Source: Dillenia suffruticosa (taxonomy: Eukaryota; Streptophyta; Magnoliopsida; Dilleniales; Dilleniaceae). Taken from it: DNA of 64,000 bases. The notes under the pieces are model-generated. The model did not search any database. It had not been told where the DNA came from and was given only the letters and a program-made list of their open reading frames with translations. Both the position numbers and the translations under genes were made by a program. Position 1 is the first letter of the stretch. Each line of letters opens with the position of its first letter. The stretch spans positions 18,378,001 through 18,442,000 of the forward strand of contig JAVTVX010000035.1 of the NCBI GenBank assembly GCA_033439265.1, in the 5' to 3' direction. Of the stretch, positions 14,189-52,673 are shown piece by piece.

Positions 14189-14204
14189 AAGAGTGAGCTA
14201 GTGA
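14189..14204 (+). repeat. Left target-site duplication of the U2 fragment
   Basis: AAGAGTGAGCTAGTGA, repeated at 14239-14254 with one mismatch, directly abutting the U2-derived insert. Confidence 0.8.
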
Positions 14205-14238
14205 ATACCTTTCTCGGCCTTTTGGCGAAGATCAAGTG
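14205..14238 (+). pseudogene. U2 snRNA 5'-end fragment (nt 1-34), retroposed
   Basis: The segment starts ATACCTTTCTCGGCCTTTTG and matches the 5' end of plant U2 snRNA, as I remember it, at 33 of 34 positions; the one difference is G for T at base 23. Similarity stops just before the branch-point-recognition sequence. Direct repeats of 16 bp (15 identical) abut both ends exactly, so this is an insertion of a U2 fragment and not part of a gene: no U2 promoter elements, no remaining U2 body. Orientation is plus. Confidence 0.8.
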
Positions 14239-14254
14239 AAGGGTGAGCTAGTGA
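14239..14254 (+). repeat. Right target-site duplication of the U2 fragment
   Basis: AAGGGTGAGCTAGTGA, the partner of 14189-14204. Confidence 0.8.
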
Positions 14255-15729
14255 TTCCGGAAGGTTTAGAGAATGTGAGCACCGGATTAGTACTGGAGCA
14301 ACCAACAAATGACATATCCTCTCGTCCAATTATCATTGGATTCCAAAGTTTAAAATAATAAAAGAAAATAGTATTAATCATTTTGAATCTTAACATTTAG
14401 TCCAAACAATATCTCTCTCCCCTTAGCCAATTTAACGAAGACAAATACTAAAATAGCTAAGGAAATCAAATTTTAATGTGTTTAAATATACCCATATAAG
14501 AGTATTTTACCGGAGGTTAAAGTTAATTTAAAATTTAAATTATGGAATATGAGTGGTTACCCATTATTCTCATCTCTCCAAATAATCTCTCCATCTCTTT
14601 AAGAAATGACTAAGTGACTTAATCTTTTGCAATTTTGAGAGTTAGAACATATAAAAATTCTCTACACACTGCAGACACAGTGATATTGAGAGTGAGATTA
14701 TTTTTCTAGAGAGAAAAATACAAAGGGTTATGAGAAAATTTTGAGCATCGTTACGATTCACAGGATTTTGAATTGAGATATTGTGGATTTATGATGGTGA
14801 TTCGATTTTGTGATCATTATTCCAACCGAAAGTTTTGATGGAGGAATTTCGCACTTTATGGTTTTGTTGATTTTTGAAAACCTACGTATAGAGATATTTA
14901 TTTAAAAATTCTTACTTTTAATTTACAAGCTTTCTTATACGCATGTAGAGAATAAATATAAAATAATGAGTAGAAAAATGACATTATTTCTTTCAAATTA
15001 TTAGAAAAATAGATGTAATGAAACGTGTGAAATTTTATTACAGACAAAACATAATAGAAGTTAGTGAAGAGCATTAATTTATCAATAGACAGTTGATATA
15101 GTGGGATAGAGAATTTAATCTATTAATCAAATTTTTAGTTTAAAATTTGAAAATGAAAAAACTTACGCTGATGGAGTGTCCCCTAAATAATCAAACTGGA
15201 TTAATCGGAATATAGTTCCGAATACGGATGATGATAAAAAGTGCATTAATTTAATTTCTTCCCTTTGATGTCGGTGTTAAAGAGAGGTATTACGTGGTTA
15301 CCTCCTTCGAAATTAAGAAAAGAATATGAGTGAGCACATGCCTTTACCTTTTGTTTGATTGGCCTTACTATTATTATTTTCTTTTCCCCCACCTTTTGCG
15401 TCTCTTTTTCTTACTTTTGAAAAAGAGGTCACATTGCAAAGAATCTGTAAATTGATTTTTCCAACTTTCCTCCATGTAGTCCTCTGCTCTACCCTCCTTC
15501 CTCTCCTTGGAAATTATTGTTATTTAGATTAACCTTTTTGCAATTGGAAACATCAAACTCACTTCCTGAAAAAAGTTGGGTGCTAATGGCCTATGATAGA
15601 GAACGCATTTCCTTTCCTTCTTAAAAACGTCCGCGAGGTCATTTTACCTTGAGAGTTGATGATTATTAGATAGACAATCAAATTTAAACAATTACAATTT
15701 CAAATTTTTAAGCAATTTTGGATAACTAA
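14255..15729. other. Intergenic region
   Basis: AT-rich DNA without a supportable gene. Some stretches (14640-14830) have the look of a decayed LTR, but no partner copy or target duplication was found. Confidence 0.4.
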
Positions 15730-22242: not shown

Positions 22243-22311
22243 TTTAAAAGGTGAAAGAGATAGTATCAACCGTGAGAGTGAGAGTTAAACACGTGAGGCA
22301 CCCATTACCCA

Positions 22312-25300
22312 ATGGCTACAGATTCAGCTTTTGTGCAAGCAGCCATCCCACACTTTGATGGTCACTACGACCATTGGAGCATGCTAATGGAAAACTTTTT
22401 GCGGTCAAAAGAATATTGGGCAGTCATTGAATCTGGAATACAAGAGCCACCAGCAGCTGTGGTTTTGACGGAAACCCAAACTACAGAACTAGAAGCAAGA
22501 AAGTTGAAGGACTTGAAGGCGAAAAATTATCTCTTTCAAGCCATTGATCGTTCCATCTTGGAAACTATTCTTTGCAAAGAAACTTCCAAGGATATTTGGG
22601 ACTCTTTGAAGAAGAAGTACCAAGGCTCTATGAGAGTGAAGCGGGCACAGCTTCAAGCATTAAGAAGGGACTTTGAGACGCTAGCAATGAAGGAAGGAGA
22701 ATCTGTCACCAGCTATTGTTCCAGAACCATGGAGATTAGCAACAAGATGCGAATCCATGGCGAGAAGATGAACGACGTCACCATTGTGGAGAAAATTTTG
22801 CGTTCTTTGACTTCAAAATTTAATTATGTTGTCTGCTCAATTGAAGAGTCAAAAGACATTGATGCACTCTCTCTCGATGAGTTGCAAAGCTCCTTATTGG
22901 TCCATGAACAGGAGACGAGGAGAAGTTCAATAATAGAAGAGCAAGCTTTGAAGGCTTCTACCGATACCCATTTCAACAATTTCAAGGGAAGGGGTAGAGG
23001 TAGAGGTAAAGGTAGAGGAAGAGGAAGAGGAGACCCTGGAAAAGGAGATAACAGCAGGAATTTCAAGACCAATAATGACCAATCTCGCGGCAAAGGCAGA
23101 GGACAAGATTTTGACAAATCGAAGGTAGAGTGCTTTCGATGTCATAAATATGGTCATTATGCATCTGAATGTTATTCAAGGTTGCCTCATGGTAAAGAAA
23201 AGGAAGAAAGTTCAAATTTTGCCGCAGAGAAGGAAGCAGAAACGTTGTTGATGGCTGTTCAAGATGGACAAAAATCTGAAACAGATATTTGGTATATGGA
23301 TACAGGTTGCAGTAACCATATGAGCGGAAGTATGTCTTCTTTTTCCCATCTAAATGAAGATTTTCATTCTACTATGCGTTTTGGTGATCATTCTACTGTA
23401 AAAGTGATAGGAAAAGGTGACATTAAGATAAGAACCAAGAATGGTTTTGTGGAAACAATTTCTAATGTGTTGTATGTTCCTGACTTGAAAAGTAATTTAC
23501 TGAGTGCTGGTCAGTTACAAGAAAAGGGTTATGTAATCACTATTAAGAATGGTGTTTGTGAAATTTATGATTCTATTAGAGGTGCTATTGCAGTTTTTCA
23601 GATGAGTTCAAACAGATTGTTTCCATTGAAGATTGAAAGCATTCAATCTTGCTTGATGGCCGAAATGAAAGATCCTTCATGGCTATGGCATTTTCGTTAC
23701 GGCCACTTGAGTTTTGGTGGATTAAAGACCCTCCAACAGAAAAATATGGTGACGGACCTTCCACAAATCACTACTCCTTCCCAAATCTGTGAAGAATGTG
23801 TTGTTAGCAAACAACATCGTTCTGAATTTCCAAAAGGGAAGTCATGGAGAGCAAAGGAAGTTTTACAGCTGGTGCATTCAGACATTTGTGGTCCGATAAA
23901 CCCAACTTCTAATGGAGGTAAATGATACTTCATTATCTTCATTGATGATCTTTCTAGAAAAACTTGGGTTTATTTTTTACAAGAAAAATCAGAAGCTTTC
24001 TCTACATTTCAAAACTTTAAAGCTCGTGTAGAGAATGAAACAGGAAAGAAAATTCAGACCCTACGAACAGATCGTGGTGGTGAATATTGCTCAACAGAAT
24101 TTGAAGTTTTTTGTGTAGGGCATGGCATTCGAAGAGAACTTACAGCTGCATATACACCACAACAGAATGGTGTATCAGAAAGGAAAAATAGAACCATTCT
24201 CAATATGGTGAGAGGCCTGCTGGGAATAAGAAGAATTTCAAAGACCTTTTGGCCAGAAGCAGTAAACTGGAGCATTCGTGTTTTGAATAGAAGTCCAACC
24301 TTTGCTGTTCGAGACATGACACCGGAAGAAGCTTGGAGTGGGAGAAGACCAAATGTGGATCATTTCAGAATCTTTGGATGCATTGCATATGCTCATGTCC
24401 CAGATCAGAAAAGGAAGAAACTTGATGACAAAGCTGAAAAATGTGTCTTTCTTGGTGTAAGTGATACATCCAAAGCATATAAATTATATAATCCGCTAAC
24501 AAAGAAGATTGTGATCAGCAGAGATGTTATTTTTGATGAAGAGGCTACTTGGGATTGGAATAGGCAGCAGCCTACTCGAGTCCTCTATGACAATGATACC
24601 GAACAAGAGCAAATTTCAGTACCTTTGATGTCTGAAAGTCCAACCTCTACAGCTGCATCCCTTATGCCTGAAAGTTCAACTCCCACAGCCATTGTAAATT
24701 CACCACCAGTGGCTGAAGTCAATGAAGACGAGGCTCAAACTTTTTGCCGTGTTAGAAGAAGACCAGCTTGGATGGAAGATTATGAAGTAACTGGAATTGA
24801 AGATCCAATTACTCACTTTGCTTTGTTCGCAGACTATGACCCTACAACTTTTGAGAGTGCTGTCAAAGAAGTAAAATGGCGAAAAGCGATGGATGCTGAA
24901 ATCGATGCCATTGAAAGAAATGATACTTAGGAGCTATACGAGCTTCCAAAGGGACACAAAACCATTGGTGTAAAGTGGATCTTCAAAACAAAGCTGAAAG
25001 AAAATGGTGAAGTAGACAAATACAAGGCACGCCTGGTGGCCAAAGGTTACAAGCAGCAATACGGGGTTGATTATACAGAAGTTTTTTCTCCAGTTGCAAG
25101 ACATGACACAATCAGATTGGTGGTTGCATTGGCAGCACAGAATTATTGGCCTATTTTCCAGCTAGATGTCAAATCGGCATTTTTGTATGGGTACTTGGAT
25201 GAACAGGTATTTGTTGATCAACCTCCTGGCTATGTCAAAATTGGAAATGAGCATAAAGTTTACAAATTAAAAAAGGCTCTCTATGGACTAAAACAAGCTC

Positions 25301-26390
25301 TACGGGCATGGTATAGTCGCATTGAGACTTATTTCCTTAAAGCTGGTTTTCAAAATGTCCCTACGAGTATACATTGTTTGTTAAGATCGGGGATAAAGGA
25401 AAAATGCTTATTGTCTGCTTGTATGTTGATGATCTAATATTTACTGGGAATTGTGATGCCATGTTTGAAGAATTTAAGAAGTCAATGATGAATGAGTTTA
25501 AAATATCTGATCTTGGTATGATGCGTTACTTTCTTAGCATAGAAGTAGTACAGTTAGGTGCTGGGATATTTGCTTCTCAAAAGAAATATGTGGGAGATAT
25601 CTTAGACAGGTTTCAAATGAAGGATTGTAATCCTGTAAGCACTCCAGTTGAAGTTGGCTTAAAGCTACATAAAGATCATGAAGGGAAGAGGGTCGACAGC
25701 ACTCTTTACAAACAAATCGTGGGCAGCTTGATATATCTGACTGCGACAAGACCAGACATAACTTATTCTGTAAGTCTAATCAGCAGATATATGGAGAATC
25801 CTACAGAAATGCATTTGTTAGCTGCCAAGAGAATCCTTCGTTACTTGCAAGGAACTAGAGATTTTGGGTTATTCTACAAGAAAGGTGAAAAGTCTAATTT
25901 ACTAGGATTTACTAACAGTGATTATGCAGGAGATCAAGATGATAGGAGGAGCACTTCAGGTTATGCTTTTATGCTTGGGACAAGTGCAATTTCGTGGTCC
26001 TCCAAGAAGCAACCAATTGTCACTTTGTCAAGTACAGAAGCTGAATTTGTTGCTGCTACAGCTTGTGCTTGTCAAGCTATTTGGCTAAGGAGAATTCTTG
26101 AGGAGCTACAATTCAAGCCACCAGGAGCTACAAAAATTATGTGTGACAATAATTCAGCAATCAAATTATCCAAGAATCCTGTGCTACATGGAAGAAGCAA
26201 GCATATTGACGTGAAGTTTTATTTCTTGAGAGATCTTACAAAGGATAAAGTGATTGATCTAATATTTTGCAGAAGTGAAGATCAATTGGCTGATATATTT
26301 ACCAAGCCTCTCAAAATCCCAACATTTCAGAAATTAAGAAAGCTGCTTGGTGTTTGCCCATTAAAGGAGGATGGTATTCCTTTAAACTGA
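22312..26390 (+). pseudogene. copia gag-pol, disabled by two stops and a frameshift
   Basis: Reading starts at ATG 22312. In order: a Gag region of about 260 residues, an RG-rich stretch, a zinc knuckle CFRCHKYGHYASEC (near residue 274), an aspartic protease site DTGCSNHM (near residue 330), the integrase HHCC region and a DDE core, reverse transcriptase with YVDD at about 25422-25433, and RNase H ending with DIFTKPL. Breaks: TGA at 23923-23925 at the start of the integrase core, TAG at 24928-24930 before the reverse transcriptase, and an apparent one-base loss near 25350 after which the frame changes. Both stops fall where the family normally has tryptophan, consistent with G-to-A change at methylated sites. 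Otherwise the sequence is well preserved. Confidence 0.93.
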
Positions 26391-48645: not shown

Positions 48646-51600
48646 ATGGCATCAAAATCCATAATAGCTAACATTAATAAAGGTGATAAGTTCAATGGCG
48701 ACAATTATGATATTTGACGCCATAAGATATGGTATGTGCTAAAAGAGTAAGATACTTTAAAAGCTATCAACCATATCATGCAAGACCTTGAAGTTGAAAA
48801 CATTACTCAGTAGAGAAGAGATCAATAAGCTTACCAGGCATGAAAAAAGAAAGATTCCACTGCACATGGTATCCTAATTAGTTTTGTTGTATATGATCTC
48901 ATTCATGAATGTGAACAATTCCCTACTGCTCATGACATATGGGTGTATCTCAGAGAGAAGTATGGAGGTATTAGCGTGACCCGTTTGAGTCAATTGACGA
49001 TCAAATTTGACATATATAAAAAGAAGTTTGATAACAGTATCAAACAGTATCTGAGAACCATGTCAAACATGACAAGTGAATTAAAATTAGTAGGTCACAT
49101 TTTATCTAATGAGCAGTAAGTTCAAGTTTTAATCCGATCTCTTCCAGATCAGTGGAAGCACCTGAAAGTCAATCTGACTTATAATGACATCATTAAAAAT
49201 TTCTCTGATACTACTCACCACGTGGAACTTGAAGATGAGCGGCTTGGTGCCGCAAGATCAATTTCTAATACCATTGTAGCTAAGTCTAGTTTCCAGAAAG
49301 TTTCGAGTTTTAAGCATAAAAGAAACAAAAACAATGGCAAGAAAGGGAAGGAAGTTGCGGAAGGGTTTAAGAAGAACAATTCCAAATGTAAGAATAAATG
49401 AAAGCAGTTTTGGAAGAAGAAGGACAAGACCAAACTGAAGTGTTACAATTATAAAGCTCTTAGTCATTTCGCTCGAGAATGTTCCGAACCAAAAAAGCTA
49501 GCACATTGTAACGATTCTCTAAGTGTTATAAATGTCTCTAATGCTATTTTACTTTATTAATCTTATCCTATGTAGATTACAGACTTAGAAGTAACAAACC
49601 ATGTGACAAGAGATTGGGAAGCATTCGTGAACTTTCGTTGAGTTCCTCCTGGTGCAAGATGGATATACGTAGGGATCAATACGAGAGTATAAATCAAAGA
49701 GATTGACACTTGCAAACTATAATTACGAAGTGACCAAACTCTAATCTTACACGATATTCTTTATGCACAAAAAATTTGTCAAAATTTAGTCTCAGTTATT
49801 ATTTTTCTTAAACTAGGTTATGACTTGAATTTTTCTCATGATACGGTCTTATATATAACAGTGGTGTGTTTTATGGTACTGGACATATGGTGAATGACTT
49901 TTTTACTTTGGATTGTGATAAACAAATATTTAACTGTTATTTTGATCGTTATATTTCGTTAAATATTTATTCTTATAGTGATATTAATATTGATGACAAA
50001 ATATGACATGCTAAATTTGGTCATATTAAACAGAACAGAATAAATCAACTTATGAAAGCAGAACTATTGGATTCGCTTACTAAAGTTGATTTACCAAATA
50101 ATGAAAATTGTCATGTTGGGAAGATGACCCGAAATCTATTTGGAAAGACCATAAGGGTTGAATTTCCATTGCAATTGGTTTACTCCGATATTTGTGATCC
50201 AATGAATGTGAAGACTCGATATGGAGCGTCATATTTCATTACATTCATAGATGATTTCACGCGATTTGGTTATATCTATTTGATTTCTCAAAAATTTGAA
50301 TCATCTGAGTGTTTTAGACGTTATATAACGAAAATGAAGAATCAAATAGACAGAACAATTAAAGTCTTGAAAACAGATCGAGAACGTGAATATCTATCAG
50401 ATTAATTCTATGATATATATAGTGAAAAGAGAATTACTAGACAATTGACTATTTCTCATATATCTCAACAGAATGGTGTTGCAGAGAGGAGGAATAGAAT
50501 ATTGCTAAATATGACGAGATCATGATGGCGCAAACTAATTTACCCATTTCCTTTTGGAGAGATGTATTATTAATTGCGACCTATATTTTGAATAGAGTAT
50601 CTTCAAAATCATAACCAACTACACCTTATAAACTTTGGACCGGTAGAATACCTAGTTTAAATGGACTTAGACCTTGGGGTTCAGCAGCCTATATTCATGA
50701 CTTTTCCAATAAGTTTGGAAAACTTGATCCCCGAAGAAAGAAGTATATATTTATTAGATACTTTGATCAGTTAAAAAGTTATATATTAATCGGTGAGCGC
50801 AATGATGGTACTGTAACGGAAATTGAATCATGAAATGTGACATTTTTGGAAAATGATTTTCCTAATAAAGGTAAAATAGCAGAATGAGAACTTTTGTTTG
50901 AATTAAATAATTCAAATAATGGATTTGTGCAAGATGGATCAAGGGAACCATGAGAAATTGAATCCCTAGATAATCTCAATCAGAGAGATTCAAATTCTAA
51001 CGATCTAACCGAATTATTGATAAAAAGTGTCACGAAAGGTATACCCAAACGTTATTACGAAATTGAATGCCATATTTTTATCATTTCTCTACAAGACGAG
51101 AATGAGTCTAACAATATGAATGAGGCTTTATCTTGTCCTGCGAAAGATGAATGGGTAAAAGCAATGGAGGACAAAATAGAGTCGATAAAATCCAATCATA
51201 TTTGGAAACGATTGATCTTCTATCTGGGCGCAAACCTATTGGAAATAAATGTGTTCTCAAAATTAAACGCAAGAGTGATGGAACAAATGAGAGGTACAAA
51301 TCTCGATTGGTGGCAAAATGTTATACCGAACAAAAGAGTATTAATTATGAATAAATCTTTTCACCAGTACTGAGATATGCCTCAATTCACCTATTATTAG
51401 TTATTGTAACCAATTTAGATTTATAATTACACCAAATGGATGTGAAAACTGCTTTTCTAAATGGTGAACTTAAAGAAAAAATTTACATAAAACAACCAAT
51501 AGTTTTCATAGTTAAAGGCCAAGAAAACAAAATTTATAAATTGAATAGATCAATTTATGGCCCCAAACAGTTTTCAAGACAATGGTATTTGAGATTTCAC

Positions 51601-52673
51601 AGAACTGTAATCTCTTACGACTTCATGATGATAGAAAAAAACCATTGTATTGATATAAAAAAGTCCCATAATAAGTTTATAATTCTATCTCTATATGTCG
51701 CTGACATATTATTAGCCGAAAACAACATAGAGTATATCCTGAATATCAAGAGTTGGTTATCATCAAATTTTAAGATGAAGAACATAGGTGAGGCAGAGTA
51801 CATACCGGGTGTTAAGATCCACAAAAATCGTTTCAAAAGATTGTTAACCTTATTTCAAGAATTTTAGATTAAAAAGATTCTGAAACGATTTATGATAGAC
51901 AACTATAAACTCATTGATACCCTTGTGACTAAATGCGAAAGTTTAAAACTAGCGATTTGTCCAAAGACTATTAAAGAAAAACATGAAATATCAAAAGTAC
52001 CATATTCCAGTGTTGTTAGGAGTTTGATATACACTATGATATGTACTCGTCCTAACATTTGTTATGTCGTGGGTTTGTTTAGCAGGTATCAATCCGATCC
52101 AGTTGGAATCATTGGACTACGATAAAGAGGATTTTGCGATACTTAAAAGGAATTGCAAACTATTCTTTTTGTTATTAAGGAAATGATTTGTCATTGAGTG
52201 GATATACATATACTGATTGGGATGGCGATTTAGATGAACGTAAATCCACCTCAAGTTATATTTTCTTATTGAATAATGACGTCATCTCTTGGAAAAGTAA
52301 GAAATAAACATGTGTATCACTTTTCACAATTGAAGCAAAGTTTATAACTTGTATTTTTGCAGTTCAAAAATGTGTTTTGTTAAGAAAGTTTTTACAACAC
52401 TTAGGGATTATTAGCGATTCAGTGAGAGTTGTGATAATTTATTGTAATAATCAATCAGTTATCTCTTATATGAAAAATCCCAAATATCATGGAAGAACCA
52501 AACATATATATACAAAATACAATTTTATTCGAGACATTGTTAAAAAAGGAGAGATAACGTTGAAGTATATGCATACGCATTTGATGGTGGCCGATCCGTT
52601 TACGAAACCTTATAATATTCATAATTTTATGACATTTGAATTTGTTTTGTACTTGCGAGTTCTTATATCTTGA
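48646..52673 (+). pseudogene. copia 2 gag-pol remnants
   Basis: Collinear pieces: Gag from ATG 48646 (stop already at codon 25), a degenerate zinc knuckle CYNYKALSHFAREC in which one cysteine is lost, an integrase core at about 50150-50520 (SDICDPMN, FIDDFTRFGYIY, QQNGVAERRNR), reverse transcriptase at 51017-52125 with QMDVKTAFLNGELKEKIYIK and the catalytic motif altered to YVAD (51694-51705), and RNase H ending ADPFTKP near 52600. Stops and frameshifts are frequent. No functional protein can be made. Confidence 0.88.

What the first reader, a model, noticed from the sequence alone, without database searches (positions are those of the whole stretch)
14189..14254. Retroposed 34-nt fragment of U2 snRNA with a 16-bp target-site duplication
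The insert equals nt 1-34 of plant U2 snRNA with one mismatch and is abutted on both sides by AAGAGTGAGCTAGTGA / AAGGGTGAGCTAGTGA. It has no A-tail and stops just before the branch-recognition sequence. Long exact flanking repeats mean LINE-type target-primed reverse transcription. Such 3'-truncated snRNA inserts are known for mammalian U2 and U3; I do not know of a described plant case. The U2 match is from memory of the snRNA.
Basis: partly seen in the sequence, partly recalled or inferred. Interest (0 to 1): 0.75.

Follow-up and report, generated by a model that had tools for sequence, protein, structure and literature searches.

The report
Reverse-transcribed U2 RNA fragment in plant
A 34-letter piece of a splicing RNA was copied back into this plant's DNA, and it is one of many such pieces scattered through the genome, a by-product of LINE-type retrotransposition known mainly from mammals.

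Summary
In detail: window 14205-14238 is U2 snRNA nt 1-34 between two 16-nt repeats. The 'mismatch' at nt 23 is shared by a host U2 copy with promoter-like motifs, which matches the insert 34/34. It is not a lone case. U2 nt 1-22 occurs 557 times in this 596-Mb genome (reversed control 1), against 59 (control 18) for an interior piece. Of 91 non-duplicate exact-match loci read, 86 are fragments; 81 end at nt 28-38 and 62 have a clear duplication (0 of 3,604 controls), median 16 bp, with excess target/U2 identity at the 3' junction (2.2 nt against 0.7). One family has a natural empty site. U6 (15 of 20 read) and U4 (6 of 18 read) behave alike. These are 'tailless retropseudogenes', most likely made by LINE reverse transcription primed inside the snRNA. 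The class is known from mammals, and eight U2 cases are reported in maize, so a plant case is described; the scale here, roughly human-like, is what stands out. The stop is not tied to branch recognition. A telomere-associated LINE, noticed in passing, may deserve more attention.

The parts
14189..14204 (+). left target-site duplication, AAGAGTGAGCTAGTGA
14205..14238 (+). U2 snRNA nt 1-34, sense orientation, 5' end complete, no A-tail; identical over 34 nt to the host U2 copy L005
14239..14254 (+). right target-site duplication, AAGGGTGAGCTAGTGA, one difference from the left copy

Best explanation
The insert is a tailless (3'-truncated) snRNA retropseudogene. A LINE-type endonuclease nicked the bottom strand at the start of the AAGAGTGAG target; the freed 3' end annealed to the purine-rich stretch of U2 RNA that follows its 5' stem-loop (AAGAUCAAGUGUAG); reverse transcription ran to the 5' end of the RNA; a second nick 16 bp away and gap filling made the duplication. 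Shown here: sense insert that begins at the RNA 5' end, no tail, duplication, family-wide 3' ends clustered in one stretch, excess target/RNA identity at the 3' junction, a natural empty site for one sister family, and LINE zf-RVT domains in the genome. Inferred: that a LINE enzyme (probably L1-clade) did it, that the stretch is single-stranded (recalled), and the order of steps.
For: U2 nt 1-22 with up to 3 mismatches: 557 places, reversed pattern 1; interior U2 nt 41-62: 59, reversed 18; nt 10-31: 585, reversed 3. Duplication score >=9 in 62 of 91, 0 of 3,604 controls; with slack at the 5' junction 64 of 91, 0 of 1,348. In the 62: median duplication 16 bp, 3' microhomology mean 2.18 against 0.70 simulated, no untemplated base in 56 of 62. 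A second sample of 20 places not in the first list: 12 with score >=10 (2 of 755 controls), one of the 12 (L197) doubtful because the repeated letters are U2's own. Natural empty site: L020 2675-2976 is a neighbouring unit without insert and with a single AAATATAAAGGACAC. U6: 278 places, reversed 1; 15 of 20 read have duplications of score >=8, 0 of 1,907 controls. U4: 6 of 18 read have score >=12, control maximum 8 in 1,697. LINE zf-RVT domains: 150 scored matches, 11 in open frames of over 1,000 codons. Host U2 copy identical to the insert, with upstream-element and TATA-like motifs (motifs recalled).
Against: The nick sites do not show the mammalian TTTT/A or TT/WAAAA consensus: duplication starts are purine-rich (2.8 purines in the first 4 nt, background 2.0) and C-poor, and the first target base after the U2 match is A in 73%. 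The window locus itself has 0 nt of exact microhomology at its 3' junction. No empty copy of the window locus was found in its own genome. 24 of 86 fragments lack a duplication of score >=9, 13 of 86 lack one of score >=7; 5 of 20 U6 and 12 of 18 U4 copies read lack a clear one, 8 of those U4 copies being full-length by a string test. The 100 loci were chosen for an intact nt 1-22, so their complete 5' ends are partly a matter of selection. L1-clade membership of the LINEs was not tested.
Confidence: 0.9

Rival explanations
1. Staggered double-strand-break repair: two offset nicks, fill-in giving a short tandem duplication, and a captured scrap of U2 DNA as filler (patch-mediated repair as described in rice; recalled, Vaughn and Bennetzen).
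For: Plants make short tandem duplications with filler at breaks (recalled; one search gave a listing only, none of those papers was read).
Against: Comparison of the flanks of the 100 exact places found no fragment whose flank matches the upstream DNA of a U2 gene; 3' ends cluster at nt 28-38 (81 of 86); duplications cluster at 13-17 bp (54 of 62); U2 5' ends are about tenfold more frequent than interior U2. DNA filler should sample the whole gene and its flanks.
Confidence: 0.05
2. Retroposition of a pre-cut 5' U2 RNA fragment (a degradation product), joined at its 3' end, rather than internal priming on intact U2.
For: 3' ends cluster sharply, as a preferred cleavage site would also give; the window locus shows no microhomology.
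Against: Family-wide 3' junctions show 2.2 nt of target/U2 identity against 0.7 simulated, and no untemplated base in 56 of 62, which fits priming by base pairing; the mammalian study found no matching RNA fragments (PMC5322556).
Confidence: 0.12
3. A SINE family with a U2 head, of which this is a truncated copy.
For: Hundreds of dispersed matches; snRNA-headed SINEs are known in animals (recalled).
Against: Beyond the U2 part the loci share nothing consistent: flank comparison found segmental duplicates, U2 genes and scattered short repeat matches; the duplication follows the fragment directly.
Confidence: 0.02

Closest known systems
Tailless retropseudogenes of therian mammals, including U2 (Noll et al. 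2015, PMC5322556; abstract, introduction, results and discussion read)
   Same: 5'-complete, 3'-truncated copies without A-tail, with target-site duplications and target/RNA complementarity at the 3' junction; truncation in single-stranded regions
   Different: Host is a plant; nick consensus TT/WAAAA not seen here. That paper reports only eight U2 cases in Zea mays; here 62 of 91 loci read, out of 557 matches, are clear cases
3'-truncated snRNA pseudogenes mobilised by L1 (Doucet et al. 2015, PMC4476161; two sections read, other passages seen)
   Same: Same anatomy, 3'-junction homology, and U2 and U6 as the leading sources: human hits U2 1,708, U6 906, U5 360, U4 305, U1 88; here pattern matches U2 557, U6 278, U1 59, U4 46 (U1 copies read were all full-length-like, U4 mixed; U5 not searched)
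   Different: Mammalian sites resemble TTTT/A; search criteria differ between the two counts
L1-like retrocopies in dicots (PMC4838847, passages seen)
   Same: LINE-type insertion in plants with duplications
   Different: Those are mRNA copies, with A-tails in the clearest cases; these are tailless snRNA fragments

Membership tests
tailless (3'-truncated) snRNA retropseudogene | sense copy starting at the RNA 5' end | tested here: met
   window insert starts at U2 nt 1
tailless (3'-truncated) snRNA retropseudogene | 3' truncation without A-tail | tested here: met
   ends at nt 34 and goes straight into the right repeat
tailless (3'-truncated) snRNA retropseudogene | target-site duplication above chance | tested here: met
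   score 13 against control maximum 8 in 3,604
tailless (3'-truncated) snRNA retropseudogene | truncation clustered in a single-stranded stretch | tested here: inconclusive
   clustering shown, 81 of 86 at nt 28-38; single-strandedness of that stretch is recalled, not computed
tailless (3'-truncated) snRNA retropseudogene | excess target/RNA identity at the 3' junction | tested here: met
   family of 62: 2.18 against 0.70; the window locus alone shows 0
tailless (3'-truncated) snRNA retropseudogene | L1 endonuclease-like nick consensus (TTTT/A) | tested here: inconclusive
   purine-rich, C-poor duplication start, A in 73% just after the U2 match, but no A4 consensus
tailless (3'-truncated) snRNA retropseudogene | empty site | tested here: inconclusive
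   met for a sister family; none found for the window locus in its own genome; related genomes not held
SINE | shared body and 3' tail beyond the RNA-derived head | tested here: not met
   no consistent shared sequence beyond the U2 part and no tail
SINE | internal pol III promoter | not tested
   promoter boxes were not searched

The most novel reading that the evidence does not exclude
This plant lineage carries LINE machinery whose template recognition has relaxed, independently of mammals, to the point of copying nuclear snRNAs by internal priming at a density equal to or above the human one (557 U2 5'-end matches in 596 Mb), against the published impression that plants restrict this process; its nick preference differs from the mammalian L1 consensus.
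Probability: 0.55. Interest if true: 0.6.

Novelty: new member of a known kind. Interest (0 to 1): 0.5.

Why it matters
It turns one odd insert into a genome-wide record of LINE activity in a plant: each fragment is short, oriented and bounded by a duplication, so many of them could serve as presence/absence markers and as a read-out of where the enzyme nicks and how it primes. It also shows that the scarcity reported for maize is not a rule for all plants.

Tried and rejected
An Rfam scan of the window at gathering thresholds found nothing, presumably because the fragment is too short for the U2 model. A search for another copy of the window locus in its own genome gave 40 scored matches: the locus itself, two other U2 fragments, and 37 matches to a repeat that starts near 14475. 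The idea that the stop at nt 34 reflects branch-site function was dropped because U2 ends scatter and U6 and U4 copies end elsewhere. No other U1, U2, U4 or U6 5' end (22 nt, up to 5 mismatches) lies in the window. U1 as a source: 59 matches, 30 read, all 30 run on into U1-like sequence; 25 of these 30 come from one array on C11, so the 29 unread ones leave room for a few fragments, and fragments ending before nt 22 would be missed for any of the four RNAs. Literature: nine paper searches were answered. In the listings I saw no survey of tailless snRNA copies in plants; the only plant statement found is the maize remark in PMC5322556. Passages of PMC3747384, on relaxed template recognition by plant L1, were seen for background.

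Full report
What is there. The window holds, at 14189-14254, a 34-nt stretch equal to the 5' end of plant U2 snRNA between two 16-nt repeats with one difference. The one supposed U2 mismatch, G at nt 23, occurs in a U2 copy of the same genome, L005 (G000:C30:13203869-13204065), which matches the insert over all 34 nt and carries TCCCACATCG at -76 and TATAAAAG about 30 nt upstream (recalled as plant snRNA promoter elements). Of the 100 exact places read, only this copy (L090 there) and the window locus have G at nt 23.

Chance. U2 nt 1-22 with up to three mismatches is found 557 times in 596 Mb; the pattern read backwards is found once. An interior U2 piece (nt 41-62) is found 59 times, backwards 18, and an Rfam U2 search scored 46 matches. 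So U2 5' ends are about ten times as frequent as U2 interiors. nt 10-31 gives 585, backwards 3; since that pattern asks for other letters, the two counts only suggest that 5'-truncated copies are a minority. Among 20 extra loci from that list, L184 begins near nt 10 and L199 near nt 4, and L185, L192 and L198 have no recognisable nt 1-9 and no duplication.

Anatomy of the family. Nine near-identical duplicates were dropped, leaving 91. Five run on past nt 55 (L009, L027, L028, L055, L090); 86 are fragments, of which 81 end at nt 28-38; the commonest ends are nt 33 (26) and nt 32 (19). Duplication score (length minus three per mismatch) is 9 or more in 62 of 91, never in 3,604 re-pairings of left and right flanks, whose maximum is 8. 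Allowing up to four extra bases at the 5' junction gives 64 of 91 against 0 of 1,348, with 43 differences in 974 duplicated positions and 30 of 64 perfect; the sample is biased to young copies because it was chosen for exact U2 letters. In the 62, the duplication has a median of 16 bp (range 10-22), 56 have no untemplated base, and target and U2 share a mean of 2.18 nt at the 3' junction against 0.70 in 3,000 simulated junctions. The duplication starts are purine-rich and C-poor and the first target base after the U2 match is A in 73%, but the mammalian A4 consensus is not seen. In the second sample of 20 places, 12 score 10 or more against 2 of 755 controls; one of the 12, L197, is doubtful.

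Empty site. The C5 family L019-L025 carries the insert; within L020 and L023 a neighbouring unit (L020 2675-2976) lacks it and has one copy of AAATATAAAGGACAC where the filled unit has two. For the window locus, no other copy of the flanks was found in the genome; that search scores best candidates only.

Other source RNAs. U6 nt 1-22: 278 places, backwards 1. Twenty were read (15 exact, 5 with one mismatch): by the script's count all leave U6 by nt 38, 17 of 20 at nt 21-24 or 31-32; 15 have duplications of score 8 or more against 0 of 1,907 controls, median 16 bp. U4: 46 places, backwards 0; 18 were read, the clusters on C8 and C16 being left out. By a string test 8 are full-length and 10 not, but one of the 10 (L175) looks like a diverged full-length copy; 6 of the 18, all among the 10, have score 12 or more (control maximum 8 in 1,697), 5 of the 6 with the duplication starting 69-75 nt from the U4 start. 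U1: 59 places, backwards 1; 30 read, all run into U1-like sequence, 29 unread. U2 and U6 lead here as in human (Doucet et al., Table 1); U5 was not searched.

Mechanism. RNA 5' ends, sense orientation, no tail, duplications centred on 16 bp and short identity between target and RNA at the 3' junction are the marks of target-primed reverse transcription with internal priming on the RNA, as two mammalian studies describe. LINE machinery is present: 150 scored zf-RVT matches, 11 in open frames of over 1,000 codons; that these are L1-clade is recalled, not tested. Break repair with DNA filler, a U2-headed SINE and a pre-cut RNA fragment explain the data less well (see rivals).

Novelty. Noll et al. 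[quoted passage not shown] What stands out is the number. 557 matches per 596 Mb are 0.93 per Mb; the human figure of 1,708 hits over about 3.1 Gb (size recalled) is 0.55 per Mb. Criteria differ, so this is only an indication. The finding is a new member of a known kind, with a genome-wide context that is more interesting than the single locus.

Noticed in passing
G000 contig ends; loci L202-L211, e.g. L203 (C21:12000-14500): A LINE family sits at chromosome ends: 12 of the 150 zf-RVT matches lie within 25 kb of a contig end (my recount of the listing; the notebook entry says 13; the length of C37 was not seen), all 12 with the frame running away from the end. Ten of the 12 were read: 8 share a 3' end ...TTCTTTTATAT-poly(A) that abuts telomere-type (CCCTAAA) repeats directly (117 CCCTAAA copies in L203, 17 in L205, 15 in L206, down to 1 in L204), L207 abuts a degenerate version and L208 shows none in its stretch. 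It looks like a telomere-repeat-targeting LINE in a flowering plant. The listings of two paper searches and passages of PMC10088271 and PMC13089509 showed no such flowering-plant case.
   Followed up: partly
window 14475-14600: A repeat begins here: 37 of the 40 scored matches cover only this part (about 75-126 bp each), five times in pairs 6.5-6.6 kb apart (for example C12:20196557 and C12:20203200), as the two LTRs of one element would be.
   Followed up: no
window 22297-26390 and 50007-52673: Open frames that look like Ty1/copia polyproteins, the first in large open pieces, the second broken into several (judged by eye, no family search).
   Followed up: no
L097 (C34:12700293-12700814): The U2 fragment is followed by a tandem repeat of its own 3' part plus flank (CCTTTTGGCTAAGATGAGTATCAGCGGCGGTGG), as if the filled site had later been partly duplicated.
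   Followed up: no
C11:3423855-3473578: An array of U1 snRNA copies, many spaced about 1.56 kb; 20 of the 32 listed C11 copies carry G instead of C at nt 20.
   Followed up: no
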